Origin: Liolophura sinensis
Lineage: Eukaryota; Mollusca; Polyplacophora; Chitonida; Chitonidae
Length of the DNA: 64,000 nucleotides
Direction of reading: 5' to 3'
Assembly (NCBI RefSeq): GCF_032854445.1
Contig: NC_088304.1
Span: 9,621,704 to 9,685,703 of the forward strand
Shown here: positions 3,301 through 51,435 of the stretch, piece by piece
Position numbering within the stretch: position 1 is the first letter of the stretch
Layout of the letters: each line of letters starts with the position of its first letter
Notes under the pieces: model-generated
Databases searched by the model: none
Seen by the model: only the letters and a program-made list of their open reading frames with translations
Told to the model about the DNA's origin: nothing
Translations under genes and position numbers: made by a program

Positions 3301-5920
3301 AGCCCATCCAGTCTCGCTGTGCCGTGCTGAGATATTCCAAACTATCAGATGCCCAACTATTGGCCAGGCTTTTAGAGATTTGTGAGCAGGAGAGCGTGAG
3401 TTATACAGATGACGGACTGGAGGCCATCATCTTCACAGCTCAAGGGGACATGAGACAGGTAGGGGAGTTGATGAAGCCTTAAAGCTGGAAGGAAATCTAT
3501 GCAAGGTTCTATCCACGTTTCAGTCTGGCGCTTTTTGAAGATTGATTTATTGATTTGATTGAGTGTTCAGTCATACTCAATAATATTTCACTTATACGAC
3601 AGCAGCCACAATCATCTGCAGGCTGCTATTGAAGTAATTGGGGTTTAAAGAAAGTACCATTGTGAGAAAAATATTTTTACAAACTCTGTCAAAATTCAGA
3701 TATTTTTATTAGGGGCCTCTCTCCCCTTTAGCAGTGCTTGGACTGAAATCTTGTAATAGAAATAGTGTTTTCAGGTGATGAGATAGGAATCAAGCAGGAA
3801 AAAATAAGCTGTAGTTTATATGTAAACAATAACATTGGTCACTTGTTCTCAAATTTCGAAAACGATGGCTGCTATAAACAAACAGGACAAGACTGTGCAT
3901 CAAGAGTTGAAAAGGTACAGGAAGTTGAGTAGTTACTGTGGAGAGTTTTGTGATTGTCAGTATGTAATATTATGGGGAAATACATGTATGTTGCTGCAAC
4001 TGTTTTCATTGGCTACCAAGTATCTAATTTGCATATGATTGACATGTTGCAGGGATTGAACAACTTACAGTCCACTTTCCAAGGTTTTGGGCATGTGAGC
4101 AGTGAAAATGTGTTTAAGGTAAGCAATCATTTCCCGAGGGAAACCTCTGAAATTATCTCAGTGCTTTACAACCATTCAGAGCTCAGTTGTTTTGTACTTC
4201 ATTTGCTGCTAGCATGTTCGAATATTTGGGCCCAGAAGTTTAAAAAATACCTGTAATGAGTTATTTCTGTATTCTATACAATTGTTTTTTTTTTTTGTGC
4301 CATGCTCAAGAATGGTATCATCATGTAGTAATTTCTTCAAAGAATGGTAGCTAAGTCCCTAGATGGAGGAAATGATGCGTCAAATCAAGCCATAATCTGA
4401 AATCAGTTGGCCTTTCCATTTCACGTTAGTAACGACTTTGTGGGCAGGTATAAACACAATTATGCCACACCTGTCTTGTTGTTGTTGTAATTTCAGGTAT
4501 GTGATGAGCCTCACCCATTGCTCATTAAGGGGATGTTAGAACAGTGTGTGGCAGGTAACATTGACGAGGCGTACACTGTAATGGCACACCTGTGGAAGTT
4601 AGGGTATTCCCCTCATGACATCATCACCATCATCTTCAGGGTCTGTAAGACGACAAACATGCCAGAGTTTCTCAAGCTGGAGTTCATAAAGGTAAAGTCT
4701 TGAAGGGATCATTTCAGTGAATTGAATTTTTGTTCCAGCATAAGATTCTCAAATTTAATAGAATTGGGCCTTGAAAATTGAAGGAAACTTGCTGACTTAC
4801 AGCAGCCAAGACGGTGGGATATTGGACAAAGGGTCACACATAGCCATGGCCTTATGTCAATATACGTCATAACTGCTCATGTAAATGCTTGAAAGAAACA
4901 TTACAACCAGAGATGTTCAGAATTAGAACACGAATTCTTTTAACCTATTCGCATGTTTGCCAGGTGTTTATTCCAGCATATTCTGAAGGCATTATTCTGT
5001 GTAGACGGATAAAATTATGCTTTGTGTGAAGCCCTGAAATTGTGAATCCAACCATTGTAGTTTTGTCTCCAAAATTGTATGAAAATTGTGCATAAATTGC
5101 ACTGGGAGTTGCTCTTTCATTTGCAAAAATGTTGAAGAATTAGGGTGAACGGCCACAACTAACTTTTTCTGATGTGCTTGGTATCTCAACAAATCAGGTT
5201 TCAATCAGGAATTCTGATTGGGCCATGGGATGCGCCATGGTAAAGCACCTGGACACAGTTGTCACATGACTCATACCTGTCACACACATATAGCTAAAAG
5301 GCAAACCAGGGTTCAGGTGATGTAAGCAGAAACAGCTGCAGTCTCGCTTTATAGAGATCTTTCTCCCTTGATTGATCAGAATTGATAAAATCACGGCACC
5401 TTTATTGATTTTATCAGTGTGTGCAATTTTGCTTATGTTCAACTTGTTTATACAACATCACAAGGACAAAAAGTTCTGCTTTTTAAAACTTCATGTGGGA
5501 TACTTTGTTGATGAACATGAACATTTAGTCTGGTGTGTTTTTGTTTTAAATACTCGCAAATTACATGCCACTTATAGCACAGTCATCTTGCATACTGAAG
5601 CTGCTGTTACACATCGTAATCATGTTGTTCTCAGTTTCCATTTGTAGGATATTGGATTCACTCACATGAAGATCATGTTGTTCTCAATTTCCATTTGCAG
5701 GATATTGGATTCACTCACATGAAGATCATGTTGTTCTCAATTTCCATTTGCAGGATATTGGATTCACTCACATGAAGATCATGTTTTTCTCAATTTCCAT
5801 TTGCAGGAAATTGGATTCACTCACATGAAGATTTGTGACGGAGTTGACTCCCTTTTACAGATGTCCGGATTGCTGGCAAGAATGTGTAAAAAGACTTTGG
5901 ATCCCAAACTTAAAGTGTGA
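3301..5920 (+). CDS. RFC2: Replication factor C subunit 2, C-terminal half (last 4 exons)
   Basis: Small subunit of the RFC clamp loader, which opens and loads PCNA at primer ends in the nucleus and also serves the alternative RAD17, CTF18 and ATAD5 loaders. Coding exons: 3301-3458, 4053-4118, 4497-4691, 5807-5920, all with AG/GT borders and continuous phase (the first begins with two bases of a split Glu codon). The first exon reads [12 protein letters not shown], which carries the SRC arginine-finger motif, and ends GDMRQ, the sensor-2 region. Then come [38 protein letters not shown] and FRVCKT, and finally EIGFTHMKI...[16 protein letters not shown] before TGA. These match animal RFC2 almost residue for residue in the lid and collar domain. 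The 5' exons (Walker A/B) lie outside the window. Exon 4 is preceded by three decoy acceptors. Confidence 0.95.
3541..3628 (-). mobile_element. SINE family A fragment
   Basis: Short degenerate 3' piece in an RFC2 intron: TTTGATTGAGTGTTCAGTCATACTCAATAATATTTCACTTATACGAC-type blocks followed by CATCTGCAGGCTGCT. Confidence 0.65.
4932..5147 (+). mobile_element. Foldback/MITE family M1 copy
   Basis: About 215 bp with partly inverted ends (GAATTCTTTTAACC...GTTGAAGAATTAGGG). Internal landmarks shared with other copies are GGTGTTTATTC, CATTATTCTGTGTAGAC, GATAAAATTA, GAAATTG...AATCCAACC, TGTAGTTTTGTCTCCAAAAT and GCATAAATTGCACTG. It sits in the last RFC2 intron. Confidence 0.75.
5648..5806 (+). repeat. 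53-bp tandem repeat made of a splice acceptor plus exon start
   Basis: Three copies of exactly 53 bp start at 5648, 5701 and 5754. Each begins with GATATTGGATTCACTCACAT, a copy of the first bases of the true last RFC2 exon (5807, GAAATTGG), and ends in a pyrimidine-rich stretch plus TTTGCAG. The sequence just before 5648 ends TTTGTAG. Four equivalent acceptors therefore stand in a row, 53 bp apart. Confidence 0.95.
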
Positions 5921-12383: not shown

Positions 12384-15300
12384 TCAGTATTGCTCATTGA
12401 CCTCTTTCTTCATTCTAGCCTTCTGTAACACCTGTGTTCTCTTCCGTCTCTCTACGGCTTTGTTACCTACGGTCTGCTTCAGAGCTGGTAGTGTGACATT
12501 CTCCCTCTGGATATATGCTATGTCAGGCCTGGAAACAAGATGTATTAATGTACTCAGTAAACGAACATCTTACAATATGTCAATGATTCTTTTTTGCTTC
12601 AGGCAATCTGAAAAGATGGCTTTTGGTATTGCGAGAACAAATACTAAATGCTATGCTAGGTGTTTACTAAACATAAATGCTCCCCCAGCCCTCTAAATGT
12701 ACACTAAATGGATGAACAAACTGACACACCCACTCACGGACACATGCAAACCAAGATGCTCCCATTACAATATCATGAGGTATATCTTTCAAATTTTATA
12801 TCTTTTAATGGGTACCCATCACATGCCTTGACAGCTGGACTCTGACAACATTTTACTGACGTCAAACATTCCTTTCCCAGCACATCATAATGACATCACA
12901 TTAGACAGAACGTTACAGTAGAAACTGATACATTGTAACACTGTGCACAATGTGTTACAAGTAGAAGTCACTCAAAGTCCTCACACTAGTACCACCTCAC
13001 AGGATTAAGAACAAGGCTGAGAAGTTTTATTGTACTTTTCCATCTTGCAACACACCCTAAATTGCAAATTAAGATACAAACTATACATTTCATTGATGTT
13101 CTATTATAAACACAACAACTCACAGTTTTCTTGGCTGATGCTTGGGAACTGGACGACTGGACGGAAGGCGTGACCCAGGCTGATCCAGGGGTGGTGCCCC
13201 CTGGATGAGTGGGGGAGGGGCAGCCCCAGGTTCCCTCCCATCCTCAGCCACGTAGGCTTTAGCCAGCAGGTAAGCATCAGGCGTCCACTTGTGCGAGTAT
13301 AACACGTCCTTCAGGTCTGACTTTAACCTGTCTAACTGAAAACACAGTACCCATTATGTAACATCATAACAGCAACAAGCTGATAGCATAATGATAGGTT
13401 TGCTTTTTTTAAGGCACAAGAAGTACTTTTTGAGTTTCAAGAACTGATTTTTAAGTTTCAAGAACTCCTTTCTTGTTTTAACAACTGTTTTTTGAATTTC
13501 AAGAACTCCAGAATTTCGAGATCAGCAGCTTTTGAATTTCATGAGCCAACAGCACTGGAAAAGGAAAGTGTCATACCGTGTTGTTAAAACAGGGGAGGTA
13601 ACAAGGGTCCAGGTAAAGTACTAAGATAACATTATGTATTAACATTGCTGTGGAAGTATACCACATGAAGCTAGGTACCAAATTGTACTTTATGAGCTTA
13701 CCTCATGAGCCTGCTTCTCATTGACCTGCTGTAGATGTCGTATAATGAGCTCACACTCGGCCAGGGTTGGGGGCCTCTGGGGGTTAGAGACAAGCCCCAG
13801 GGGGTTGAGGTGCTGAGGCAGCCTGTCTATGGTGAAGCCGCTGGCCTGAGCCTGTTGATATTGCTGGTACTGAAGCGCCTCTATAGCCTTGTGCCTGTAA
13901 AATCATGCAAACGGTGTGTTAGCTAGGACTGTAAAGACTTTTGGTATGACACTGGTATGGGTTTGATCCCAGGTCTCCTGACTCCAATGTGGACGCTCTA
14001 AACCATCAGGCTACTGAAACGCTACCAATGTCTTGCAATATCTTATAGTTTCATGGAACGACGTCATACACACGAACTAAGAAACTGAGTAAAGTTACTA
14101 TAAAGTTACTATAAAGTGACTGAAGAAGTTTTACAGAGTTTCTGGAGGGTGGCCGAAAATCTTTATGAGTCTCATACTCACTGTCGCTTCCTCTGGTCTT
14201 CAGACTGCTCTAGCATCTGACTAAGATGAGCGCTGCGACTTTTTGCCTCCCTGACCGTTTGTTTGAGTTCGCGAACTTCTTCCTCCAGGAAAATCACCTT
14301 CAGTTCATCCAGCTTCTCCTCTGTAAACACCAGTAAGATCTATAAACTTTCTGACACATATGCTGGCTTATCAGTTTAAAGGCATCCATGGAGTAACAAT
14401 AAATTTAATAATGAAAATAATACATATATAGAAGTTATTTACTGCTTGTGGAGTAGATCAATATGACAGCTCCAAATCAGATTAATGCCTCAAAATGACA
14501 TTACATACTGTAATTCTTCAACCTTCTCACATGTTCGCAAGGTGTTTATTCCTGCATACTCTGAGGGCACTATTCTGTGAAAGCTGATAAAATTATGCCA
14601 CTGTAGTTTTGTTACAAAATCAAACTTAAAGGGTGCATAAATAGCACTGAAAGTTACACTTTCATGTATGACAGGGTTAAGGAATTAGGGAAATGGTGTA
14701 ACACAATACACACCCTATTTTGTACACCCACACAATATTTTTGCATCTTTAAAAGCAACTTTGATTGCAATTTATCCACCTCAATGTTTTGTGAGAATTT
14801 ATGTTTTGGTGGGTTTGCCAACATCAGGGCAAAAAAATAATGTTTTATTTTACACAGCAGAGAAATATCCTCAAAAAATGCTTAAGACAGCACCAAGAGA
14901 ACATGTGAAAAGGTTAGTAGAAAAAGAGTGTAGGTGAAATTCGCAGTATTTCTCACATCAAGTAACAGATATGTACACATATACCTACCTCTGTCAGAAT
15001 TGTCAGAGACCTTGGATTTCAAAGAGGATGAGGAAAGCTCTGGGAACAAGATTAAATAGCTGTCATGCATAAATAAGAGAGAGAAAGCAGCGCACACACA
15101 GGTGAGCTAGGACATGCTATTCAGTCAGGTCCCTTGATTGAAGAAAAAATGTAAATGCTATCCTCTTATTCCATACTGTCATTTTACAACTGCCATTTGC
15201 TATTTGGCATTTACCATTTGTGTGATTGATATCATATCAGCAATAAAATAAAAATCCCTGTACCGATTTTAGTTCTGACATATTTCATGTATCTACATGT

Positions 15301-16389
15301 TAATGTGTTTTTGATATCTACGAGGAATCCCTCAAACCTTAAGACAGATTGAAGAAATGAATCTGTTTTCCTTTTAAGCCAGACTGTCCAAAAAATACTT
15401 GTCTATTTGATAGATCATGATTCATATGTTCATTTTTAATACCAATTTGTTCACAGAGACAATATGCATAATATGCAAATAAGGGGAGCAATAGGTGGCA
15501 ATGAGTTTAGAGGACACAGAAGGGTAAACACAGATTTTCTGAATTTAATATATAAGGCAAGAGTGTCATTATGTTGTGTTTTACGGGCAAGCTAACAAAA
15601 TCCAAAAATTGAATAAAAATAAAACTTAATATCCACCTTTTCATTTTGTCTGATATTCATGTTGTTCAAAGCTTTTCTATCAGAGAAATATGCCATCAAG
15701 AGGAAATATTCCTGGTCTCGGGACCACGAAGAGATCTTAGACTAAAGTCATAATTTCAAAACCTTAAAATATTGTTATTTCTTATGTAACGAATTCAAAA
15801 TATAGCTTGGCAACATAAATTTCGGGTATAAAAAAGTTATTGTATAACAAATTTCAGCTAATATAATGCAAATGAACATACCAAATTTAATGTTTGAAAT
15901 TTGACTAAGATTGCTTTGTGATCCCAGGCCCTGGGATACTCCACATTTCCCGCAAATTTTAAAGTTTTATTTTTATGCCCTCCTCCAACATTAAAATAAG
16001 ACTTATTCCACCCAAAAAACAACAATCTAAATTAGTGTGGTTTAAAGTAAAAACAAAAAAAAAATCATTTTATCCTTTGCTTCCTGCTCTCACAGAGTTC
16101 ATGTCACATTTAGGTCATGTAACATTAACATTTAGGTCATGTAACATTTACATTTAGGTCATGTGAGTGATAATTCGTTATCCTCTGAAGTGGTGGAAAC
16201 TTTACACAATGTGTTACTATGACTGCACATACATTTGGAAATCCCAACCTATACTGAGCAAATGGCAAACCTTGGTTAAAACAGTGTACACATATGTCAG
16301 ACTGAGGGCATGTTAACACAGTACAGTATGAGAAAGCTTTTAGCTATCTTAGAATATTATGCAGGCTTGTAGATATACATGTGCACACA

Positions 16390-16448
<59 letters not shown>

Positions 16449-18878
16449 CCTAGATGATTATGAAAAGCAATAACATTATAATCCACGCAGCATAGCATTC
16501 TTAAAAAGTACAATGTATGAATACAGATGTATTACTAATCAAACTACAAACTTACTTTATGCATATTTGAGTATATCTGTAATCATCTACCAGGCAAATA
16601 ATATGTGCTACATGTAAGTACTATACTTTATTAATATAATATTTTACTCATTTATTGTTGAGGGCCTCCATAGCTCAGTTGGTTAGCGCGCTAGCGCAGC
16701 ATAATGACCAAGGAGCCTCTCACCATGTGCTGTCACTGTGAGTTCAAGTCCAGCTCCTGCTGGCTTCCTCTCAGACCTGGGAAGGTCTTCCAGCAGCCTG
16801 CGGATGGTCATGGGTTTCTCCCGGGCTCTGCGCGGTTTCCTCCCACCATTGTGCTGACTGCCGTCATATAAGTGAAATATTCCTGAGTACGGCGTAAAAC
16901 ACCAATCAAATAAATAAAATATTCACTGTACATGTTGTGGAAATGATACCATTCACTCAACACAGACATAGAGTATATGACTGTGTAGGGACATTCAAGT
17001 AAGATTAATGGGAAAGCATTGTACCCTAATTCCTCAACCTTTTCGCACATCAAAGAGGAACTTGTAGTGCAATTTAGGCACATACTGAATTTGGTTCAGG
17101 AGCAAAACTCTGTTGATTGGATTGGCCAATTTCAGGGCTTCAGCAGAAGTGTAACTTTATCAGTCTACTTGGAATAATGCCTTCAGAATATGCTTGAATA
17201 AACACCTTTCAAACATGTGAAAAGGTTGAAGAATCACAGTAATCGTAAAACTCGGCAGGCAAGTACATGTACTAACTGTCCAACCTTACTATGAAAATAA
17301 GATTAGAAATGAATACCTGCCACGGACAAATTTACAGACATCTTTACATATACTTTCTAAATTTTTAAAGTCATTCATCCAAAAAAACAATTACAATCTA
17401 TGCAGAAAGTTTTGCAGAGCTCTTAATGAGGCCAGCTGGAAAACAGATATCATCTTTTCAGTGTCATGCTGTTATATCAAATGTTACTTTACCTTTTTCT
17501 GTTATGAGGTTTTCTCTGGCAGCACTCGCCCGCCCAGCTTCTCCATCAGACTTAAAATCGGCATTTGAAGGAGATTTTGATTTCTGTGTCATGATTATCT
17601 TAAAATTGAGATCTATAAAAGAGGTACATAATACAGAAAATGACCAAGTTATTGAAATAAATTAAACTTGTACAACTGTTTCTAGACTAAAGGATTTGAT
17701 CTTGGAAATTTCATTTCAAATGTCATTTCATCACCTTTTGAGAAATTCAGACTTCTAGGCTGGTGGGGAATATTCAAGATATGCAAAAAATAAGAGTGTC
17801 CGAAAAATCAGAAGAATAATGGTAGTCCCTGGTGGCTACCTTATTAACCTCTTTTTACAATGGACTCTACTGAACTCTGAGGCTGTTCGTGGTTGGGCAC
17901 ATGTATACAAGAATGAATGTTACTTCATAATTTCTCGAAGTAGGGTGATCAGGGCAAGACCATGTGGTACAGCCCAAAGTCTTCCTTTTTATATTAAGTT
18001 GAGACTATTTGAATATATTTAGTTGAGACTTTAAATTCAAGCTAATCATATGGTAGGATTAAAACCTTAAGCACAGTGACATCACAATGAATATTCATGA
18101 GGAGGAAAGGAGGCTTTTCACTGGACAAGTTTAAAATCAGTGGATTTTGCAGAAAATGAAGAGGTTTCTTCCTTATGAAAACTTAAAAAAAAAAAATAGA
18201 ATTCCATATAGCTGGTATATCTCTTTTATTCCAGGTATACCATAGGTTGCACACATGTGTTCTTTTCTTTTAAACTGCAATTACTGCAAACGCTCTAAAA
18301 ATTTGTACAAAAAAGGCACATTTAGCAGCAAACACAGGTCATGACATATTACCTTTTGTGAAGAAAAGGTAATATGTAATGTAACATGACAGCTATTTAA
18401 TCTTTTTGTGTTTTTTTACAGGGTTATCATTCTGCCTTTCAAACAATTGCCAAAACACCTTTCTAAGATCAACGGAACTCACTGAATCATGCAAAATAAG
18501 TAAATTAGTCATGCATGGAATTGTAGGTTACGTACAGTATATCTTACAAATACCTTTATTTTCTTTCTTGAGAGCCTCTATTTCCTGGTGCAAACTTTGG
18601 AGAATTTCGTTGTGTTGCTGACGCATGAAAACCACGCTTTTCTCCAAATGATGAACCCTCTGTAATCCGCTCTGCGATGCCATGTCTTGCTCAGAGTTTT
18701 CATCACTTTTGGGGGGCTCCATCGGGGGCAACAATCTGTCCTTCACAAAGGGTTTGGGGTAGCGCGCTTTGTCCAGAGTGTTCACTCGGGACCACTGAGG
18801 AAGTGTCTTCAGCGGGGGTAGGTGATTCATGGGAGACAAATCGGAGATTTTCTCCTGGACAAAGCTCTGCTTCAGCAT
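12384..18878 (-). CDS. CCDC74: CCDC74-family coiled-coil protein
   Basis: Complete coding region, 394 aa. Exons from 5' to 3': 18878-18554, 17612-17493, 15039-14989, 14320-14182, 13894-13702, 13335-13124, 12528-12384; every border is GT-AG and phases close (lengths 325, 120, 51, 139, 193, 212, 145). Human CCDC74A/B are microtubule-associated proteins of the mitotic spindle. Residues about 72-118 (LEKSVVFMRQQHNEILQSLH, then DLNFKIIMTQ) match the CCDC92/74 N-terminal coiled coil. Residues 167-235 form a second coiled coil. PTLAECELIIRHLQQVNEKQ (about 254-273) and the C-terminal LPALKQTVGNKAVERRKRTQ match the CCDC74 C-terminal region. The basic C-terminus ends before TGA at 12386-12384. The start is the first ATG of the first exon's frame, downstream of an in-frame stop. 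A further 5' non-coding exon cannot be excluded. Confidence 0.9.
13420..13560. repeat. Degenerate 24-bp repeat in a CCDC74 intron
   Basis: Four or five loose copies of TTTTTGAATTTCAAGAACT, between CCDC74 exons 5 and 6. Confidence 0.6.
13935..14022 (-). mobile_element. tRNA-like SINE head or tRNA pseudogene
   Basis: On the - strand, TAGCCTGATGGTTTAGAGCG resembles a polymerase III A box and GGGATCAAACCC a degenerate B box, spaced as in tRNAs. It lies in the CCDC74 intron between exons 4 and 5. It does not fold as a convincing functional tRNA by eye. Confidence 0.4.
14509..14690 (+). mobile_element. Foldback/MITE family M1 copy
   Basis: TGTAATTCTTCAACCTTCTC at the left and GGGTTAAGGAATTAGGG at the right, with GGTGTTTATTC, GATAAAATTATGCC and TGCATAAATAGCACTG inside. 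Slightly shortened relative to other copies. Confidence 0.75.
15560..16030. repeat. Dispersed repeat, diverged copy 1
   Basis: Words such as TGTTTTACGGGCAAGC, ATCCACCTTTT, TTCATGTTGTTCAAAG and TTTTATGCCCTCCTCC recur in the same order at about 52975-53260 (GTTTTACGAGCAAGC, ATCCACCTTTTGAATTTGTC, GTATACCCTCCTCC). The two copies are old and the element type is unknown. Confidence 0.45.
16108..16162. repeat. 22-bp repeat, about 3 copies
   Basis: ATTTAGGTCATGTAACATT is repeated with small changes. Confidence 0.85.
16391..16446. repeat. (TA)n microsatellite
   Basis: About 28 uninterrupted TA units in a CCDC74 intron. Confidence 0.98.
16661..16918 (+). mobile_element. SINE family A, full-length reference copy
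   Basis: The best-preserved copy. It has a tRNA-like head GGGCCTCCATAGCTCAGTTG with GTTAGCGCGCTAGCG (A box) and GTGAGTTCAAGTCC (B box). A middle body follows (GGCTTCCTCTCAG, GCCTGCGGATGGTCATGGG, GGTTTCCTCCCACCATTG). The tail is AAGTGAAATATTCCTGAGTA, CGGCGTAAAACACCAATCAA and (ATAA)n. It is antisense to CCDC74. Confidence 0.92.
17021..17241 (-). mobile_element. Foldback/MITE family M1 copy
   Basis: CCCTAATTCCTCAACCTTTT at one end, GAAAAGGTTGAAGAATCAC at the other: a near-mirror pair of about 20 bp. The inside carries CTTCAGAATATGCTTGAATA and GTCTACTTGGAATAATGC. Confidence 0.8.
18340..18395. other. Short hairpin in CCDC74 intron 1
   Basis: ATTACCTTTT and AAAAGGTAAT pair around GTGAAG, with further imperfect pairing of GTCATGACAT with ATGTAACATGAC outside. 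Role unknown. Confidence 0.6.
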
Positions 18879-19542
18879 TCCGAGTGTTCCACTTGCAGTT
18901 CTCCACCTCTTGCCCTCACCACTTACACACACACTGGGAATACACTTCACTAGATACAACTGCCTGTCATTTCCTGAACTTCACCTTAGGTTTCTAATAT
19001 CTTCAAACAACACCTAAACAGGTCCTGCAAAACATATAAATGATTTTAATTAAACACTGGTACACTACATTTTAACGTATTTGGGGCGATCTGCGAAGTG
19101 GGCAGGCTGCTACGGATTAAAGGTGGAATCACCTGCATTGTAGTGTGCATATTTGTAGTGAGATCTGACCTGTATTTTTGCAGTGCATGAGATGGGAGAT
19201 GGTACTACTCCAAGAAAAGCGTATGGAACATTGCACAAGACATCAAAGTATTGGAGCAAAGATGGTGTCAAGTATGTGGGACTAAGCCCACTCCTATGAC
19301 TAATATTGGGAGAATATCAAGACATTAAAGTCTGGATAGCAGCTAGCTTGGACACCCCATATAATTCCTGTCCACTTCTACTACAATGAGAGTTGTATGA
19401 AATATTAAGGAGATCACTTAGCCTGGATTTTCAGATCAATTCGTGGTTCAATTAAATCAAACATTCAGTTCTACAATATCAGAAATTTTTGGACACAGAC
19501 ACCAACATTTAATTTCACGCACCAGCTAGCTGCCTGTACATG

Positions 19543-23218: not shown

Positions 23219-26200
23219 ATGAAGAACCAGCTGCAGTTCAACATGAGCGTGCCTCCATCTGCCTCAAACCTGGCCTTACGACATCAAGTTATTGACCCGA
23301 TCATTGTGGAAAAAATTGGAGCAGTAGATGGAGGCAGAGTTATGCCCCCTTTGGCTGTCAATGCTGGGAAAACATTCCAGTTTCAGGCTCTTTCACAAGA
23401 CAAACTAGACATCGCAGTTCAGTTGGCAAAACGAGACATGAAGAAGAAAAAACTCGCAGAAGTAATGGGTCAAAAATCAAGGTCACCAAATGAAAGAGAT
23501 CATTCAAGGTCACCCTCACCACTCAGTCGAAGAGGAACAAAAATAGTAAAAAGCAGGGAATACAGAGAAAGACTCAGACAACAGGAATTAAAGAAGAAAA
23601 AAGCAAATGTGCTGAAAATAAGGGAACGGGTTGGGAAGGGAATTCTTGGAAATAACAGCAAACAGGGAAAGCCATTGGTATCAAGAGAAAGGACTGGGAG
23701 TCCAACTCCTACCTCCCAGCTTCCAGGTTTGTGTTTATAGACTGAATCACACTTTTCGCTAAATGCATATTTTCCAAGAATGTCGTTGTGGATTGACGTT
23801 TCCTCCTACATAACATTCAATCACAAACATAAATCCACATAATTAAATGTAGTCTTGTTGACTGAAAAAAACTAAGCATGAATTAATGTTTTTTTTTTCC
23901 TCAAAGACATGTCAGAGCACACCTCCTCCAAACTGGTTGATCTATTTCATTGTTGCTTAATGACACAGTAAAGATTTTTCCGTTGCATTTCATAGGTGCA
24001 GTTAACCGGAGCACCCATTTAAACCAACAACCTTTGGCAAGTTACTGGCAAACTTTCCCACATGTGACCTGCAGATAATTATATGCACATCATATTGCTG
24101 CATTCTACAAAATATTATGGCCTTTCTTTGGTTTTTGCTTGATGCTCAGCAGCGGGGTGTGTGACGTACTGGTCAAACTTTTGCCAGTATATTTGTCAGT
24201 GAGGAAGAGTTATAATACCTGCCAAAGATGATACATGCAGGAACATTATTGTCAAATACCTGCAAAGAAACATCAAAAACATCTTTATTTTATATGTTTA
24301 TTTTTTTTTTTTCAGTAACAACGTCCTCTCCACCTACACGTGACTACAACCCCAGAAGAGCTCTCACAAAAGATGAGCTTCAATCTTCTGAAATTAAGCG
24401 CCTGCAGACAGAGATCCAGCAATTTCTGGTGAAAATACAGGATTTGATTCAGGGAATTTTAGACGGTATTTATCACAAATTATTTTTCATACATTCTTGT
24501 CAAACTATAATGTGATATTTGCCACATTTCGTATTCTTTTGCCATGCGATGGGAAAAAGAAGTTTTTCTCTCTGATTTTTGGTATAAACATATTGAACAT
24601 TTAGTATATGTATTTTAAAATGAAAAAATGTTACTGCAGTTGGTTATGTAAATGCTTTATGCACAAATGAGATATAACAAACAATGAAAACTTAACAAAC
24701 ATTCTATTTCACATAAAGTTTGGCCTGTAAATGCTTTAAAACAGTTACGTGGGATGCAAGCACTTAAGTTTTTGTGATAAGAAATTAATAACACTTTACA
24801 AGAAATCTTACGAGTGGATGATACAGTGGATGAATCAGTCATAATCAAGTAAAATGTGCGACGTGAAAAATACGAAACTTGAGACCAAATACAGTACTTT
24901 CACCATGACCAGCCTGGATAGCACAATTGTTAGAGCGTCCGCTTCAGGAGCGATGGATCCAGTATCAATCCTGGGTCGAGTCACACCTAAAACTTTAAAA
25001 GAGGAAGTTGTAACCTCCTCGCTTGGCGTTCAGCGTAGAGGGAACCGAGCAGAGCTTAGAGATAACAACTCCTCTTCTCAAGGTACCTTACATAAGTACC
25101 CTGACTACATGCCGCAGTTGGACCAGGTAGAAAATACCGATTGAACCGGTTTCAAAAACGCAGCTTCGTGGCCCAGTGGTTAGTGGGCTGGACGTTGGCA
25201 GCGTAGACCACTCAGAGAGTGACCCATTCTTGTATATCTTGCTTCCACAGGCCTGAAAATGGGAGCCTTATATTTTTGGAAACAAGCTTATTCGGTGGAA
25301 GTGGCAAGAACCATATTGTCCATATTATACTGCTCATCTCAGTTTGTCCAAAGGGGTGTTTTCAAAAATATTACAGCTATGGTTGTATGTGTGTTTACAT
25401 TTTAAGTCAGAATTGCTTGAATTGACTGGCTTTTATGTACATCACCTTTTGCTTGGTTTCCCCCACTCTCTGCTTGCTAAGTTGTCCATGAAGCACGTAT
25501 GGCTGTTTGCACAGTCTTAAGTCTAGAAGACCACTTGTCTTCTACCAGAATGGTGTGCATGTCTGTACGTCAAGTGTGGGAAAGTCTGTCAGTAATTTGC
25601 CCGAGATTGGTGGTTTATGCTGGGCATTCTGAGTTTGAATTCCTCCATCCATGAAGCCTACTGCCATCATAGAAGTGAAAAATTCTTGAGTATGGCATTA
25701 TGAAAGCAACAATCAGATAATAAATAAATTTACTTGATGACAGGAGACATGATGCGGGATGGTACAATTAAGCTGAGAGGTCAAGATGACCTACATTTGG
25801 GTCAGGAGGAAGGGGAGGTAAGAAGGCGATTACGATGTGAAGAACAAGCAACGCGCTCATCACGGACAGTCTACTTCCTCAAACAACAGGTGCGAGGGAT
25901 ACAGGAAGACTTCACTCGTTTGGGTCCAGAGAAAATCCTACAAGTGAAAATGGTGAGTATAGCGCCTTTCTATGTTTTCTTCTGTTTCGGTGTTTTTGAA
26001 TCCACAATAAAATGTGGATATTTCTGCAGTGCCTATGAAAGCATCTACGAAAAGATCTACATGTAGCTTTTGATAATCCTTTAACGCCCCTAAGACAGTC
26101 CGTGATTTTGAAAACTTTGAGTGTCACTGGAAAAGTGTTGAATGGTAAATTCTGCCCTATAACATTAAAAAATGTAGAAGCATTTTCATTGTTTTAATGT

Positions 26201-29200
26201 TCACCAAACATGTTGATGCATATTTCAGACTCAAACTCTAACCCGCCTAGCTTCTGCCCATCGAGGTGCTGTGAGGGCATTACAGACATTTGTCACTCAG
26301 TTACAAAACCAGCTGCCCCGTGAGGGCCCCCCAGCTGGGTGCAGGGAACTGACAGGACTTGTCAAACAGTTAACCACTCTGTCATCACAAATTGTTCAGA
26401 ATGGACAGACAGACGCACAAGACAAACAGACGGATGCTCAGACAACAGTCACTCTTCTAGGTCACATTGAAGTAAGTATTCTTATTCAGTGGACATCCAT
26501 GGCCAAGTCGTTAACATGGCAGCATGGCGCAGTGACCCAGGAGCCTCTCACCAATGCGGTTGATGTGAGTTCAGTTCCATTTTCTCCTGGCTTCCTCTCA
26601 GGTCTTAACTGGGAAGGTCTGGCATCAACCTGCAGATGGTTATGTACTTGCTCAGGGCTGTGCCCGGTTTCCTCTGAGCAAAATGCCACCCGACATCTTG
26701 TAAGTGAAATATTCTTAAACACCCACCAAATAAAATATGCACGTACACTGCATGTGAATCTGTACTTTTCAAAGTAAAGCCTATGTACAAATCAAAACAC
26801 TTGTTGAAGTCGGTAAATGTAGTTAGAGTGATCTAAGGGAACAGATTGTGGAAGAGTCGCTAAGACTTGGACAGGGAAAGTGTGGATTCACCTGCTCTCA
26901 TGATATGCATGTGGCCATCTTGTGGAGTGTTACATTTGTGGAATACCCTTTGTCTTCTACCAGTATGGTGTGCATATCCAACTGTCCATCGGTACCTTTT
27001 TGCTGTTCATTTTAGCTTACCTGTACAAAGTAAGGAGGGGTATTGTGAGAGTGGGGATCAGGTTCGGTCGGTTTTGGACCAATCATAGGGTTGCCCTGAT
27101 CATCCATAGTACACAGATAGCCAGTCCTCAGAAGCAATTTGCATATCAGACCAAGGGAGTTTTTTAACCTCATAGCTCAACATTTCCTTAGCCATTCACA
27201 GGGTTGCAGTTGCCACCTATAGTACATGGATTGCTAAATGCTATTCTCAATGTGCATATCAGAGACCTCTGTGGTAAATTTGTGCACAAACTCTCCGCTG
27301 TGTCTTTCACCACGGGAACGATCTACAACTCCAGAACACACGCAGTCACTGTTCTGCAATCCTTACACATGCGACAAACGGTCATAGTTGTTACAGTATA
27401 ATAATTTGTCCTTTCTTGCTGATTAATGGCAAGATCTTAGCACTGTCTAACAAGAGAATAATATCTGTGTATGACAGTGTCAGTCATTCTACCTTTATTT
27501 TGGTTTTGAGGTCTAGATTTGAAAGTTTCACATGACATAAACAGTATGAAGCCTTATGAACTTCAGGCGAGCTATCGGCATTCTATGAATGCCTGAAATG
27601 AATGTCATAGTTCATTTCATAAATACATTGAATCTTTGCAAAAGTGAAATATTCCCGGTTCACTGCCTGACTTTGATGATCATTTTTTCATTTTTTGCTC
27701 TTTAAAGGATCTGCTATCGGTATGGGAGGAGGAAAGTCGAATCATTCAAGCAGCACACAAATCGCCAGAGAGGAACATCAACTGTGACCGACCCAAACAA
27801 AGCGGATGCAAGGTGGACACCAAGAAGAGAGGTGGGTGCAGTCATCGCTGTGCTGGCAAAAAGGTCATTAGGGTTGATTTTGTTGTCAGTACATGTAGTT
27901 AGAAGAAATCAAAATTACCGAGATGGTCATGAAAACAGTAAAGGTATCTTGCAAAATTTCAGACTAAATGCGGTCTTGTCTTAGGCCATAAAAATATGTT
28001 GCTAGCAATATGTGAATGTCAATTTGCATTGGGATGTCACTATGTTATCATAAAGATAACTCAAAAGCTATGTGTTGAGTGCACAAGCCCATGACCATTG
28101 ACATTTGGGAGTTTATATTATAGCTGTAGATTTTTTGCCCATTCTTGAAAATGGTTTAAATAATACCAAAATATTGAATCATACATCGCTTTGTATCGTT
28201 TCTTGAAATTAACACAATCCTCTACTTTTATGAAGCTTATCAGTGGAAATGGAAATATTTGCCCATATTTTTTTTTTTTTTTGTTTGACAATCTGGTGAG
28301 GTACTATACTGATTTTTTAAGATTTCAAGGAACTTGTTTTAGTGTAAATGTATAAACAAGCATATCTTTCCATGTACCCGTAGGTGTGTTGAAAAAGGCA
28401 ACCAAATCCACTGCTGGAAAGTTTAAACCTCAGTCTAAGGGGAGACAATCAGGTAAAGTACAGTCTGTATTTTCTTCACTACCTTCGCCAGCTCTAACTG
28501 TGTGTGTGAGCATTACTGACAATAAGTGGTCAACAGCTCTCCAGTTTCCTCTTTCCCATATAACTGACCACCATCATATGACATGTATAAATGGAAAGGT
28601 CGTGTGCAGATTCTGTAATGTTGTCTAATGTACTCAAGTTACTTCCAGGAATAGTTCTCAGTCTGTCATTTGTTGTTTTTCATTTCTCTCAAAGCTTCCC
28701 GTCTTAAAAAATTAACTTAATATATTTCAAGTTCTTACTCCCCGTGAGGCCTAATAATGTTACGGTCATGTATCATGATCAGTATTTTATTAGTTTGATT
28801 TTGTATTTTTTTGTTGATCTAGTTTTGTTTTCAACAAGCAGGTTTTAATGTATGGTGGAGAGAGTACAGCTAAAAAATTTACCAATCTTAAGTTTTCTGT
28901 AATCATTTTTGCTAATACAAATTCATATTTCCCTCACACAGTAAAATCTGCTAGCCCCGAAAGACGAGCAGCCCTCAGAGCTGGCCTGGCTGCCATACTA
29001 AGGGAAGACAACTCCACTGGTCGCGCAGCGGGGCCAGGGCCAGAGGAAGACAGCGTAAACTGGAGGGGGATGAGGTTTGAGCCTCTGTCCCTACCAGCAG
29101 AACACAAAGGGATACTCTTGCCCCCACACTTACAGGTAAGGTCTGTAGGCCTGCCCCCACTTGTATGAGAAAATTTTTGGTATTTGGTAAACCTTGATAT

Positions 29201-32200
29201 CTGGAAACAATTTGACATTCTTATATGTAATTTTGCCTGGAGTACAAACTTGAACAAAAAGTCAAAGCATACCGATACCTCAAATGAAGAAATGAATTAC
29301 TCTTCAGATTCGCTTACTAATGATGATATATTAGTTACTTACCAATGATGATATATTAGTTACTTAATTCACATCATTCTCACCTGTGCGATTGCAGAGA
29401 GCTCAAGTCCAGCTGCAGGCTCTGACCAGTTCCCTCTCGCCATAATGCTGATCACCGTCATTTTAGTGGGATATATTTTAGTACAGTGTAAAACTCAAGT
29501 CAGATAAGTAAATTCACGCCCCGAAAAATCTGCGACCAAACCGAAGCTGGATTCAGGCACACAGCCTCACTGATCAGAGAAACTATATGAGGTAGCTCAT
29601 CTTGTGATGCTTGCCTTGATGAGTTTTTTTGGTTAAATTTCTGAAAATGTTACATGTAAATACGTTTAGTTGTTTTGAGGGAGGACGGTGGGGATTATAT
29701 AGAAATGTTCCATGAAACCTGTTGTCAGATATTGATAACCGCTTCAGTGATGTAATGATGTGAGCCTCCACTTCAAAGTCAGTAAACCTGTGATCAAACT
29801 TGCGTCAGGTCAAAAATGTTACTTGCTGCCTCGCTTGGAGTTTACAGGGATTCATATACGTCAATTTTAGACCCATTCAGTGGTAAAATTCAGTTAAGGA
29901 CTGAATATTGGGGTTAAAAAACTCAATTCTGTGTTTTCTGGTACAATTACTCAAATTTTTGGATAGAAACTGGAACTGCTTTCAACACTATAAGCGTAGT
30001 GATGAGTGGTTGACTTTCATCGCCGACGGCTGTATCTGTGACAGGCCGAAGTGGTCATGCATATATTGGCTGTAATTATATTAAAATTAAGCTGTAAATA
30101 TATACAGACTATGGTGATATGACTTAGTGAGTATAAAACAAATTAGGAGTTCGTTAGTATTTAGTTTGATTAATCTTTGGTATGCCAAAAAAGTGAAAGA
30201 AAAGTAGATACAACACGTACTAGCTTCAAATGAATATCTCTTTGATACACCTTATCCCATTGGCCAGTGTGTCACCCGTGGACCAGTGAGTGAACTTCTA
30301 ACAAATTAGGAGTTCGTTAGTATTTAGTTTGATTAATCTTTGGTATGCCAAGAAAGTGAAAGAAAAGTAGATACAACACGTACTAGCTTCAAATGAATAT
30401 CACTTTGATACACCCTATCCCATTGGCCAGTGTGTCACCCGTGGACCAGTGAGTGAGCTTCTAACAAATTATGAGTTGTATACGACAACGCAATGGCCGT
30501 TGACTGCTTGACTTAATCAAGCATGAAAGACCGGCTCCGATAATGGTGAATTTATATTTTACGTTCAACTACCTAAAAGGTGACAGGTCACTTTGCCAGT
30601 TGATTAAAACTAAAAGTACTCACTCGACAGAGTTCTAAGATATTTTTTCAGTATTCCCTTCATTAATTCACCAAAGATTAATTTCGGGGAACCCATTTTT
30701 GAAGTAAATCTGTGAAAATAAAAATACTTTACAGGATATACCTCTGATCAGGATAAGTGTTGTCGTTGTTGTGTAGGCCTATGTAGGCCCTATATTTTTA
30801 TCTTTTATGTAATATTTGTTAGTTCCTTTTCTTCTTCTAATATTCATAGCAACCAACAACTGAACATGCATGGTTTATTTCGTTACATACCTCTGAGCAG
30901 GATAAGCCTTATCTCGCCTTATCGTGCACATGTTAAACTTTCTCTCTCATAGATATATATATATATATATATATAATACATACTTTCAGGTTCACAATTG
31001 GTTGCTAGAGCAGAATAAAATTCATTACCCAGTTACAGTCAGCGCTTAAAATATAAATAAACTCAATCTGGTCCAGAAAAAAAACTCAATTTTGTGTTTC
31101 CAGTTGTAAAAATATGGACTTGCATGAATCCCCGAGTTCAGTATTAAGATGTTGAGCAAGAAAACAGGACTGGTTAGCTCTTTGTCAGTATAAAGTGACT
31201 GAAAAATTAAGTATGACATTAAAACAACAGCACACATACATGTACATATGCATCCGATTTTGTCTTTCCAGCGACCTCGGCCTGCCCCCACAATGGGTGT
31301 TCCCGCAGTGCCTAGTGGTCATTTTGCAGAACCTACCATGTCTTTTAACCTGAAGGCAGTTGTCCCCCAGCGAAACAATGTCAGTGAACCCAGGTCATCC
31401 TCTGCTCCAGCCTCCCCTAGGTATGCCAGACAAGCTTCAAATGGACATAAAATCTGCCACTATATATACGTAGAAAATATGATATAGGATACAGTTATCA
31501 CAGAAAAATATGTAAAAAAATTCTATAAAACTCTGAAAGCCAAGAAAATGAAGTTCAGCATTGGGGATATAGCACTGACAGACAATTCATTCCAAGTAGC
31601 CATGTTGTAGAAGCCCTCATCACCTTGGCTAATGACTAACGCTGAAAGCATCACATGATAAATGGCTGTCACGTCAAAAAACTTCTTAGCTGTTGATTGT
31701 CAGTGTGGCTTTTTGCAGTGGATAGATGGATATTGATGCAGTGAATTGGATTTTGAGGTTAGTTTCATTATTAAACTGATGCGTATTGGACCACACATTT
31801 GTGAGTTCTCAGGAAACTGAGAACGGCTGCCCGTATCACAATGCATACATGTTGGGCAGGAGACTGCAATAACTTGTTAGGGTGAGCTGGCAGGAGTGCC
31901 ACCTCGGGAGAGAATGCTTGAAGAAAAATATTGTGACTTTGCATTATTTATGTATAGTTAGACTCATTTTTTCATGAAACTTCCTTTTTGGCAAATTAAC
32001 TCCAGTACAATCAATTTTTATTTATTTATTTTTTTTTCTCACAGCAGAGGAAGAAGTCAACCACCTGACGCCTACTGGATTCCTCCAGGCACCCCAACTC
32101 AGACCCGTAAACTGAGCACCCCACGCAGCCGTTCACACAGCCCTGGGTGTGTCACATGTGCCAGCCTCAATGCTTCCATGGAGGATCTCTCTGTGTAAGC

Positions 32201-35200
32201 ATCTTTTGCTCACAAAGGTCATGTACAATACTAACAGCCTCTGCTCACCTAATGTCACCTAATTGTCATTGACTCATCAAGGGTATATTACTCACCAGAG
32301 GTCATGTGCTCACCACGTGTCATTTAATCACCAAAAGTCATGAACCTACCAAGTGTTAATCACGACATGCCATTTGCTCACCAAGTGTCATTTATTCACC
32401 AAAGGTCATGAGCTTAGCAAATGTTATGTAATCATCACATGCCATTTGCTCACCAAGTGTCATTTAATCACCAAAGGTCATGAGCTTACCAAACGTTATG
32501 TAATCATCACATGCCATTTGCTCACCAAGTGTCATTTAATCACCAAAGCACATTTGCTCACCAAGTGTCATTTACTCACCTAATGCCATTTACTCAGAAT
32601 GACTCAGTTACTTGACCAGTAAGATCAGTAATACTTTGTAAGTATTATATTTATCTGACTTATTTAATCATACCCTTTTTCACTTCATACTTCATATAAA
32701 GGTTTTGAGTTTTATAGGTGGAGGAAATTTGAGCGCCCGAAGTAAACCACTTAAACATTAACGAAAATTAATGAATAAATACATAATGAAATAAATACCG
32801 TGGAACAGGCTTAAACAAGTTGTTGTGCATAATTTGGCATTTAATCAAATTTTTATTCAAATTTGGATTCACTATAGATTTCTTTGTAAAAATGTTCCAT
32901 TATCTATTGTAGTATCCCATTTAAATGTTTGAGAGGAGATCTGAATAATGCATTTTTCTTTTTTAAATATAACAGTGTGCAGTTCTTAATGTGTGGAAAA
33001 GTTTGTCAGGAACTTGCCAATAGTTTTGTTGCCTTCAGCACTTCGGTTTTGTCCACCAATGAAAACCCTATACGTGTACATGCCAGTCATCATGTAAGTG
33101 AAAAACTCTGCTTGTATGGCATTTGATAAATAAATTGAAGCTAACGTGTACATCTGGAGAATATTTACTGTTATCGATACAAAATATATGGTCCGTCAAT
33201 TTTTTTGTCCACAGAGAACTGTTCAGGGAGAAAAGGAGACAAAAATCGGTGAGATCATGTGCAGAAGATTTGTGACAAATGAGACGTTTTATTTTCTAGC
33301 AAGTGGTTTTATCTGTTTTTTAACTTTGTAATCTATCCTGCTTCTGTAAAATTTTTGCCATGTGCTGTATTTTACGTAATATTTGGCACAAGTACACTTT
33401 TAGAAACAAATAAAGGCATGATCATTTTGACGCAAACACTTATGTTTCCAGACTTCATAGAAAACACAGTGGCTCTATGAGGTGGATGAACCAATCAGAA
33501 TCAAGCAAAATGTATCAGAATCAAGCAAAATGTATCAAAGCTTAACTTCAGGTGAAATACAGTATTCAAAGCAGATTTGATGTAAAAACTCTGCCATAAA
33601 CAGAAAAGTCTTTAAAAAAAGCAAGTTTCATCAATTTACAAAACAGATCATACTACAATGTTATCTTGAGGTCATTTCTTTTTTTCATTTTTTAGCCCAA
33701 AGGTCATGTCCATTTTGCAAGTTCAAGGTCTAGGCCCAGGTCAAGGTCGCCATCACCAAGGTATGTTTTTGTAATATAAAATATTTTCATCACCCATAGG
33801 TCATCAACTGTAAGGTTTCTTCCTTGGCTGTTGTTAAACTTCCATCCACACTAAGTGCGTGCAAATTCTCCAATTGTATTACTCTAGCTTTTGTATTTTG
33901 TTGAAACAGTTATAGAAGATTTCCTGTGGCACAACACAGTGAAGAAGATATTGCCAGGCGATTGGAGCCCCTATACAGCCAATCAGAGGTGAGAATGGTG
34001 AAGGGTCTAGAATATAACTACGGATGTCATTTTAATGCATTTTTCGGCAGTGAGAGAAGGTTGCTGGGGTCCTGCTGTTGTTGAAATTTCATATGCCCAG
34101 ATGGCTCACATAGAAATGTGAAAATTGTGTGTTCTTCGATTTAAAATAATGTACATATGTAGAACCAGTGCGTATGTGAGAGTGGGTATGTTATCTGGAG
34201 GCACACAAGATATGAGTTCAATCCCAGCCTTGGACCTGATTTTATACATTCTGCTGCTCTCATTGTTTATCGGAGTTTTGCGACCATAAAGTGTTGACAA
34301 AAATGTGAGAATGTTTTTGAGTGTTTTTCCAATGTTTGGTGGTTTTCCATAGCATTCCTATTTCTGCCACCCACAAAGTTGAGTGCCAGCAGGGCCATAT
34401 CTAGAGCTATTTCAATACCGGAAAACAGAATTCTCGACTATGACATAATTTGACAGCAATCAAATCAATCAATTTGTCTCACATGTAATTATTGCTGGAA
34501 GGAAAACTTTGTGAGAGTTGGAGAGGGGCTCTCTCTCACATGAAAGACTTCATTAGCGTATGAGTAATTCTACAAAGTTTTATATCTCTCCACATGCATC
34601 AGTCGCTATTTTGGTTTATTTCTTTCAATCCAGTTACTAGCCAAGAAGCAAGAGGCAGCGATGAGAGCAAATTTAGACCGGAGGAGAAACTTTCAGTTTG
34701 ATTCTGACATTGATGTGAGTATTTTGCGTAAGGGAGAATTCTTCTTGGTAAGTTTAGATAAATGTTTCTTGGGATCTGTTTTTCTTGTCCGCAAAAACTG
34801 GTTTGGGACTTCCTGCAATTCAAGAACCGTAGATAAGTAAATGAATGCACATTTCATCACAGACCAGAAATGACTGTTTGGTTTATTTTAGCTGTAGAAA
34901 AAAAATCAAGGAGCTTAGGAAATTGCCTCCCCAAAATGACAAATATTAACAACCTGTTCTCTAAGTTTAGCTGAAAATCCAAAACCCCATTTTCTCTGTA
35001 TATTTTGAGAACATTAAAGAGGCTGTACCAGAGATTTTTGGCAAAAAATCCATATTCGCTGATAAAAATAAATTTTCTGTATTGTATACTAAGAATATCT
35101 CTACCTATTGCCTGTCAGACTCATACCTGTACTATTTACAGTGTTAAAATGACTCCAAAGTTTAAAAGAAATTATGAGTTATAATTTTAGGAACTTTATT

Positions 35201-38200
35201 AACAATTTTGATAGGTTACATGTGCATAGATAAGGCTGATATTTTTGGGCTATTCTTAGATAGTAGCAAAGATTTGATGAGATTTACGTGGATCAATTTT
35301 TTGCCAGTAGTCTCTTGTACACTGAAAAAGCTAATATTTAACATTTAACATATCATACTTCAACACTTTAACATGTTTACCCAACAACTGATAATAAGTC
35401 CCCTTTAAAATGTTGATCATATACATTAACAACTTCAAATCACTCTGTTTAAGCAATAAACCCATCCAATTTACTGCATAAATTATTGCATTTATACAGT
35501 AAATGTGAGTATTTATAAAATACTGATAATACTGTATTGATAAAATAAATCAATATATTTATGAAACAAACACGTGTATTTGAAAAACGAACATCCCTTG
35601 AACATGTTAAAAGTAAGCAGTTATTATAGTATGTGCTGGTGTTACCATTCAAAATAGTTGATGAATGTCCTAAAATGTATAAAACATATCAAATTACAGG
35701 CTTTTGAAACTGTTAGATCATTCTAATGCTCTAAATAGTATAGGTACGAGTCTGATATTTACTGAAAGGCATTAATTTGTTAAACTCGTTTGTTATCTGT
35801 TGCAAAGATATGTTTAAATGACAAACATTTGTTTTTTCAGTGTATAGAGAGTACTAAGACATAACCTTGAGAAAATCTTAAGACATCATGAGGGGCCTCT
35901 GTGGCCAAGTGGTTAACTTGCCATCAGAGTGCAATGACTTAGGAGGCTCTAACCAAAGCAGTGAGTTCAAGTCCAACTCATGCTGGCTTCCTCTCCAGTT
36001 GTACGCGGGGAGGTCTGGCAACAACCTGCAGATGGTTGTGGGCTTCCTGTTTCCTCCCAACCATAATGCTGGCCGTCGTCATATCTGAAATATTTTTGAG
36101 TACGGCGTAAAACACCAATCAAATAAATAAATAAATAAATCCTGATCAAGAAGCTTTATTTGGAACCCAGTCTGTCAGTGAAGGGTTTTCTATGATTTGG
36201 GTTTTAAATCTTAAATTCTTTCTTAATAGCAACAGACAAGAGGAGAGGTACTGAGTGAGTTATTGTTTAATGACCTCCTCACCAATACTGTTGAAGAGTT
36301 CCAAGCTATACAGGGAAAGAACTCTGTCACCGAACAAGCTGCCAGTTTGATGAACAACCCCTCACTGGAGGTGATGGTACAGCGACTGGAGCAAATGGAG
36401 GTGAGATGTTGGTTAGGTTGTACAGAGATTGCTGAAGCGTGTATTAGAGCTTAAGCCAGGCTTGTATCTTAATAGGACAGCACACAATAGTCTAATGGTT
36501 AGAGGGGACAGCTTCCTGGGATCAGACCTGGATCTGATGGCACTTGTTGCTGCCTCACGTGGCGCTCAGCAGTGAGAGATTTAGCAAGGAAACATGACTG
36601 GTTGGTCGGATGTAAGGATATTGTGACTGGGTGGAGTGTCGTGTCTGACTTCCTCAGCATGAAGCTTCTGTGGCGGCAACACTTCGGCGACATGGACTCA
36701 CCTGAAACAACTAACGAGAAGACACAGTATTTTATTGTATACACCTTCTGTATATTTGTAGCTTACATATAAAGTTTGGTCAAAATATGGAAACATTAAA
36801 TGTGTGAATTCTCAGCTTTTTAAGAAGTATCTATGCTTTTTTTATGCTAAGCATATATTGGTGGATCAACAAGAAAGAGACGTCATGTATAAAAGTATAT
36901 GTCTTGTTGTTTCTGGTTTGTGTGTTTAATATTTTCCAATATGAAACGTTTTGCAGCTTGAGCAGGAAGCGATACGACGTAGGTGGACATCAGTGAAGTT
37001 TGACACAGAAGAGATACGCAGATGTGGTATGTAGATCTCAATAAAACTTTTATGGTTTGTTTCTTCAATTTTAAAATCCCACCTTTAACAACCATTTTTA
37101 TTTGTTTCGTTTTTGTGAAGAAAGCCATTAAACTAATCAGAAGTAAGAGTGGGTTTCTATGGGGTTTGGTTTGCTCCAGTAAATTTTCAAATGATTGGGA
37201 AATAAGAAAAGCTGATATGTACCCAGCACTGCGAGAGGGCTGTGAGATGGCTGTGAGATACACTTTGAAGCTTAATGTATCATGATAATATTCAGAATAT
37301 CTATTTATTTATTTATTTGATTGATGTTTTGCGCCATACTCAAGAATATTTCACTTATATGGCAGCGGCCAGCATTATTGTGGGCGGAAACCGGGCACAG
37401 CCCAGGGGAAGCCCACAACCATCAGCAGGTTGCTGCAGACCTTCCCACTTACAGCCGGAGAGGAACCAGCATGAGCTGTACTTGAATCAGAATATCTAGA
37501 TCTGTTCTCAAATTTCATACCTTCCAGTTGTTGGTGATGACGGACCCTCCGACCCTGGACCTTTAGATTTGGCATCATTTTCCAGACACGAAGTTGAGCG
37601 ACTGAAATTAGGGTGAGCTATCAATAAGCATATCTACTGGCCAGACACAACTGTCAGTCATATTAGTGCAAAAATTTTATTTTATATAACACTCTCATTT
37701 GAGCTTTGATAGCCCGATAAATTTGTAATGGTGATATATGTGTGGGAAACATTTATTCTGGTTGCCGATTCTAATTTGCCATTTGAATTTTCTTGTATGA
37801 AGAACATGTTATATTGAACGTTCTGAAAACATCTGTCATTCTTTTTTTTTTTTTCAAATACATTGTTTTCTTCCACCATTTCGTCCATGTCATTTCACTG
37901 AACAGAGGTTGATATAAACTCTTTAAACAAGTGGAAAATGTTCGTTTCAAATTACTTGGCTCCAAAGGAAATACGTCTGTTGATATTACTGGTATTTCTT
38001 CAACCTTCTTGCACGTTTACAAGGTGTTTGTTCTGTGTAGCATATTCTGTGTAGACTGATAAAATTATACTTTTTGTGAAACCCTGAAATTGCGCAATCC
38101 AACCAGTGTAGTTTTGTCTCTAAAATCTAATTGTAAATGTGCATAAACTGCACTAAAAATACGTAAGTTGTGTAAAATTGTGGAATTTCACGTCAATTCA

Positions 38201-50990: not shown

Positions 50991-51054
50991 GGGTATACAT
51001 GTAGCAACATACTGGATATGTTTTGGTTGCCTGCTATTGAATGTCTTTCCCACT

Positions 51055-51435
51055 TTTGGTCAAACATCTTGTCCTCTTCCTCTGTCAAGATTCGCCTTCA
51101 ATACTTTCCCCAATTTGGTCAAACATCTAGTCCTCTTCCTCTGTCAGGATTCGCCTTCAATACTTTCCCACTTTTGGTCAAACATCTTGTCCTCTTCCTC
51201 TGTCAAGATTCGCCTTCAATACTTTGCCCATTTTGGTCAAACATCTTGTCCTCTTCCTCTGTCAGGATTCGCCTTCAATACTTTCCCACTTTTGGTCAAA
51301 CATCTTGTCCTCTTCCTCTGTCAAGATTCGCCTTCAATACTTTGCCCATTTTGGTCAAACATCTTGTCCTCTTCCTCTGTCAGGATTCGCCTTCAATACT
51401 TTCCCACTTTTGGTCAAACATCTTGTCCTCTTCCT
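51055..51435. repeat. 59-bp array derived from a coding exon end, about 7 copies
   Basis: CAAACATCTTGTCCTCTTCC starts at 51061, 51120 (one change), 51179, 51238, 51297, 51356 and 51415, exactly 59 bp apart. CAAGATTCGCC and CAGGATTCGCC units alternate, together with matching differences (TTTGCCCATTTTGG or TTTCCCACTTTTGG), giving a 118-bp higher-order unit. Copy 51380-51432 is the last part of the - strand gene's coding sequence; the others lie in its 3' UTR. Confidence 0.95.

What the first reader, a model, noticed from the sequence alone, without database searches (positions are those of the whole stretch)
5640..5830. Four splice acceptors in a row before the last RFC2 exon, three of them decoys
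The intron-exon junction of the final RFC2 exon has been copied three times upstream in exact 53-bp steps (5648, 5701, 5754, 5807). Each copy has its own pyrimidine tract, AG and first 25-odd exon bases. Only the fourth leads to the conserved C-terminus. Translating from each of the first three gives a TGA about 25 codons in, so their use would remove the collar end of an essential protein or trigger decay. Keeping three intact decoys in a housekeeping gene suggests either a very recent event or regulated unproductive splicing.
Basis: partly seen in the sequence, partly recalled or inferred. Interest (0 to 1): 0.72.

Follow-up and report, generated by a model that had tools for sequence, protein, structure and literature searches.

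The report
Tandem repeat spanning an RFC2 splice junction
A short repeat has copied the start of the last exon of a DNA-replication gene three times into the intron before it, a kind of splice-site "mirage" already described in lancelets (amphioxus) and probably harmless.

Summary
Window 5619-5832 is four tandem copies of a 53-bp unit: 29 bp of intron end plus 24 bp of exon start. The gene is RFC2, 130 of 173 residues identical to human. Only the fourth acceptor (exon from 5807) continues into the conserved C-terminus; the other three reach TGA at codon 25.

This is a known kind of feature. PMC3087553 and PMC3902484 call such duplications of exon-intron boundaries "mirages" in amphioxus genes, and report allele length variation and regular splicing (passages). 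The window's species could not be tested.

The "decay" idea is weak: the decoys extend the exon that holds the normal stop, so exon-junction-dependent NMD is not expected unless a 3'UTR intron exists. A decoy product would lack the equivalent of human residues 328-354. Tandem arrays cover 13% of the window, so one hit among seven identified RFC2 junctions needs no special cause.

By sequence alone decoys 2 and 3 score as well as the real acceptor, so some decoy use is possible. Best reading: a young or homogenised, mostly neutral minisatellite, a new member of a known kind.

The parts
3301..3458 (+). RFC2 exon (E)PIQSRC...GDMRQ; the first codon is split and its G is taken to come from the exon before
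   Evidence: tblastn with a recalled human RFC2 sequence; splice sites
4053..4118 (+). RFC2 exon ([22 protein letters not shown])
4497..4691 (+). RFC2 penultimate exon, ends phase 0 in ...LEFIK
4692..5806 (+). last identified RFC2 intron (donor GTAAAG), containing the decoys
5619..5671 (+). unit 1: decoy acceptor, first exon base 5648; TAG, extra AG at 5633
5672..5724 (+). unit 2: decoy acceptor, first exon base 5701
5725..5777 (+). unit 3: decoy acceptor, first exon base 5754 (identical to unit 2)
5778..5830 (+). unit 4: functional acceptor, first exon base 5807; longest pyrimidine run 8 against 5
5807..5920 (+). last RFC2 coding exon, EIGFTHMK...LDPKLKV, stop 5918-5920

Best explanation
A minisatellite has arisen by tandem duplication of a 53-bp segment that happens to span the 3' splice junction of the last identified RFC2 intron (the anatomy is shown). 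The exon body is attached only to the 3'-most unit, so that unit must stay functional, while the three upstream units are intronic and free to drift and to be homogenised with each other (inferred). Splicing normally joins 4691 to 5807 (inferred from protein conservation and from published amphioxus cases). Occasional use of a decoy would give a last-exon variant with 24 codons after 4691, probably a low-level by-product rather than a regulated switch. It is a new example of the amphioxus 'mirage' class.
For: 53-bp x 4 array exactly across the junction. Conserved C-terminus, including the Glu, follows only unit 4. The three decoys share GAT where unit 4 keeps GAA, and both edge units differ from the identical inner pair; PMC3087553 describes homogenised interior units and excluded edges for the BflGb6 array. 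The ends of the duplicated segment share only AT, as in a simple local duplication. PMC3087553 and PMC3902484 describe the same arrangement in lancelet globin, Adh, TnC and PGBD5 genes, with 6 and 3 units on two haplotypes of BflGb6 and regular splicing suggested by RT-PCR. Arrays, this one included, cover 13.1% of the window, so at least one of 7 identified RFC2 junctions being hit has probability about 0.62 under random, independent placement.
Against: No RNA reads, second individual or related species were available. The organism is not established: no whole genome is held, and amphioxus is inferred from the feature and the minisatellite-rich sequence. Decoys 2 and 3 score the same as the true acceptor on my matrix and have the same candidate branch points, so nothing shown here forces choice of the fourth; PMC3087553 itself says such sites could act as cryptic splice sites. 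The edge/interior pattern rests on four substitutions.
Confidence: 0.85

Rival explanations
1. Regulated alternative splicing: decoy acceptors are used under some conditions to make an RFC2 with a changed C-terminus or to lower its level.
For: Three decoys are intact and two score as high as the real acceptor. All three reach TGA at the same codon.
Against: Exon with the normal stop, so classical NMD is not expected. Published mirages are reported to splice regularly. A young or homogenised array gives intact decoys without selection.
Confidence: 0.07
2. Assembly artefact or collapsed haplotypes: extra units created during assembly.
For: PMC3087553 notes that the draft assembly of BflGb6 appeared aberrant, and PMC2632668 that tandem repeats are among the repeat types that confound assembly of amphioxus haplotypes (passages).
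Against: The array is only 214 bp, shorter than an ordinary Sanger or long read, and the edge units carry private differences. Other arrays of many periods occur in the window. For PGBD5, re-examined reads confirmed the repeats.
Confidence: 0.05
3. An early step of intron gain or exon shift by duplication of a splice junction, as proposed for amphioxus globins.
For: The model in PMC3087553 starts from this kind of structure.
Against: No good donor inside the array on my recalled matrix: the best GT scores -2.46 (unit 1) and the best in the other units -4.87, against 3.8 to 7.0 for the three RFC2 donors, so no decoy piece is likely to act now as an internal exon.
Confidence: 0.03

Closest known systems
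[quoted passage not shown] abstract and passages seen)
   Same: Tandem minisatellite-like units; in BflGb6 they are intron 3' end plus exon start, with decoy AGs in many units, a functional edge junction and interior units more alike.
   Different: Units 150-160 bp there, 53 bp here; BflGb9 duplicates a 3' exon boundary; RT-PCR and two haplotypes (BflGb6) available there, not here.
Mirage minisatellites of amphioxus Adh3 (Canestro et al. 2002, PMC117041; not held; known only as cited in PMC3087553 and PMC3902484)
   Same: Repeat spans an exon-intron boundary; units 10-72 bp as quoted, a range that includes 53 bp.
   Different: Somatic length instability is reported there; not testable here.
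60-bp and 108-bp repeats at lancelet PGBD5 splice sites (PMC3902484; passages seen)
   Same: Tandem repeats coincide with or overlap splice sites in a conserved gene; copy number differs between two assemblies.
   Different: Imperfect repeats, and the gene model was confused by them; here the real exon is clear.

Membership tests
Amphioxus mirage minisatellite | tandem units each spanning an exon-intron boundary | tested here: met
   29 bp intron + 24 bp exon, four units, anchored by RFC2 homology
Amphioxus mirage minisatellite | functional junction is the edge unit joined to the exon body | tested here: met
   only unit 4 continues into the conserved C-terminus
Amphioxus mirage minisatellite | interior units homogenised, edge units divergent | tested here: inconclusive
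   units 2 and 3 identical, units 1 and 4 differ by 2 each; the pattern fits but rests on four substitutions
Amphioxus mirage minisatellite | host is a cephalochordate | not testable with these tools
   no genome held; Pfam and solved-structure matches only suggest an animal
Amphioxus mirage minisatellite | copy number differs between alleles | not testable with these tools
   single sequence
Amphioxus mirage minisatellite | regular splicing despite decoys | not testable with these tools
   no RNA data
Poison exon / unproductive splicing coupled to NMD | premature stop followed by a downstream exon junction | tested here: inconclusive
   decoys extend the exon that holds the normal stop at 5918, which speaks against it; a 3'UTR intron was not excluded, and the nearest AATAAA is 1.7 kb downstream at 7584, with an ATTAAA at 6545

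The most novel reading that the evidence does not exclude
The array is a length-variable splicing modulator: each extra unit adds an acceptor, possibly with an exon-derived branch point, so the fraction of truncated RFC2 depends on an individual's copy number, giving heritable and possibly somatic variation in clamp-loader dose.
Probability: 0.05. Interest if true: 0.7.

Novelty: new member of a known kind. Interest (0 to 1): 0.22.

Why it matters
It would add a conserved clamp-loader gene to the genes reported with mirage repeats, and it offers a natural test of how the spliceosome picks one of four acceptors that look nearly equal. If splicing is faithful, signals in the exon body or the longer pyrimidine run must decide. 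Otherwise it is ordinary.

Tried and rejected
Whole-genome lookup: none held. Rfam at gathering scores and an ARAGORN scan of the window: no match. Decoy piece as an internal exon: unlikely, no good donor on the matrix.

Branch points: acceptors 2-4 have two perfect yUnAy matches, 37 and 41 nt upstream, in the exonic part of the preceding unit; acceptor 1 has none within 15-60 nt. I had taken this as a pointer to mechanism. The control weakens it: 62.8% of 3689 plus-strand AGs have at least one such match and 26.2% have two or more, while two of the three other RFC2 acceptors (3301, 4497) have none.

A second mirage in the 171-bp array at 41067-42369 (minus): eight acceptor copies, the last with the best score (5.01) and a 31-residue frame to a stop. 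Only a candidate: three of the seven upstream copies have longer frames in that phase (40, 37 and 85 residues), and the last copy's peptide has no match among solved structures. Control: 9 of 15 arrays carry at least one acceptor-like site above 1.5 on some strand, this one on both, and the plus strand of the 51045-51436 array reaches 8.6, as high as RFC2. So the acceptor score alone proves no junction; for RFC2 the homology does.

A donor-side mirage at 51045-51436: not supported. The GT sites listed inside it (those above -4) score -2.32 or 0.94, and the frame may simply end in the array.

Exon finder: heuristic; 1 of its 12 training exons was entered one base out of frame (4054-4118), so I cite none of its scores.

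Full report
OBSERVATION. The sequence at 5619-5832 is a tandem array of period 53, 4.0 copies, 97% matches. Written out, each unit is 29 bp ending in TAG or CAG followed by 24 bp starting GATATTGG or GAAATTGG. First exon bases are 5648, 5701, 5754 and 5807. The score of 400 compares with a best of 75 over 20 dinucleotide shuffles of the window, and no other place in the window matches the unit within 15 of 53 mismatches.

GENE. The exons 3301-3458, 4053-4118, 4497-4691 and 5807-5917 (joined by hand; the first codon is split and its G taken from the exon upstream) encode a protein whose best match among solved structures is replication factor C subunit 2, chain 6vvo_B, E 1.6e-87. Against human RFC2, typed from recall and agreeing with that chain's printed alignment, 130 of 173 residues are identical. 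Pfam gives Rep_fac_C, E 4.9e-28. tblastn with the recalled human protein found no convincing upstream exon in the window. The last exon starts EIGFTHMK, human EIGYTHMK, with its Glu at human residue 319.

DECOYS. From 5648, 5701 and 5754 translation gives 24 residues, DIGFTHMKI then unrelated sequence, and TGA. The part equivalent to human residues 328-354 would be lost. These acceptors extend the exon that carries the normal stop, so exon-junction-dependent decay is not expected (established knowledge). A 3'UTR intron was not excluded; the nearest AATAAA lies 1.7 kb downstream at 7584, and an ATTAAA at 6545.

ACCEPTOR COMPARISON. On a simple matrix with recalled frequencies the sites score 7.16, 8.52, 8.52 and 8.52. 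The matrix begins at -20, so it misses the one base at -21 (T in unit 4, G in unit 3) that gives unit 4 a pyrimidine run of 8 against 5. Acceptor 1 also has TAG and an extra AG at 5633. Perfect yUnAy matches lie 37 and 41 nt upstream of acceptors 2, 3 and 4, in the exonic part of the preceding unit, and none within 15-60 nt of acceptor 1; the nearest upstream one is at 5574. This is suggestive at most: 62.8% of 3689 plus-strand AGs have such a match, 26.2% two or more, and two of the three other RFC2 acceptors have none. Another array's plus strand (51045-51436) reaches an acceptor score of 8.6 without any known junction, so the score alone proves nothing; the homology does.

HISTORY. Units 2 and 3 are identical; unit 1 differs at two intronic positions; unit 4 at one intronic and one exonic position. 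Unit 4 keeps the codon for the conserved Glu, so GAT in the three decoys is most simply a change that spread among units free of coding constraint (inference). The duplicated segment's ends share only AT. This fits local duplication followed by unequal exchange or slippage; timing cannot be fixed from one sequence.

CHANCE OF HITTING A JUNCTION. Tandem arrays, this one included, cover 8365 of 64000 bases (13.1%), and one of seven identified RFC2 junctions lies in one; random independent placement would give at least one with probability 0.62. No affinity of the repeat process for splice sites is needed.

KNOWN KIND. [quoted passage not shown] six and three units on two haplotypes of BflGb6; homogenised interior units; RT-PCR suggesting that regular splicing is not disturbed, with the remark that decoy signals could act as cryptic sites. 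Passages of PMC3902484 add PGBD5 and cite Adh and TnC. The Adh paper is not held. Passages of PMC2206037 and PMC2632668 mention tandem repeats and assembly errors at two other amphioxus loci, without describing junction repeats in what I saw. In the listings of the 10 answered paper searches I saw no RFC2 case; only one search used RFC2 as a term, and the 8 of 81 papers that it listed had zero occurrences. That is not proof of absence from print.

TAXON. Not shown. Neighbouring CCDC74-like and moonraker-like exons suggest an animal. Amphioxus is an inference from the repeat type.

The branch-point detail was weakened by the new control, two membership rows were set to inconclusive, and interest was lowered from 0.24 to 0.22 for that reason.

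CONCLUSION.

Noticed in passing
41067-42369 (minus strand): 171-bp x 7.6 array; eight acceptor-like sites, the last at 41086 followed by a 31-residue frame to a stop. Candidate second mirage, unproven: some upstream copies have longer frames.
   Followed up: partly
51045-51538 (minus strand): 59-bp array with a 118-bp higher-order period that begins inside a coding-looking frame (EMLKNRARHLPIFK...DKMFDQK).
   Followed up: partly
1-1868: 119-bp minisatellite (13.3 copies in its first stretch, with further stretches of the same unit) upstream of the first RFC2 exon seen in the window.
   Followed up: no
63430-63560 (minus strand): 33-bp repeat that keeps an 11-residue frame (RDQMEEPVQLH), possibly a coding repeat; no Pfam match.
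   Followed up: partly
12390-18974 (minus) and 23219-38510 (plus): Exons resembling CCDC74/CCDC92-family and moonraker (MNR) proteins by Pfam; two of the matched stretches (13123-13338 and 38253-38510) are below the family's cut-off.
   Followed up: partly
54368-54916 (minus strand): 183-codon coding-looking frame with no Pfam match up to E 0.1 and no solved-structure match up to E 10.
   Followed up: partly
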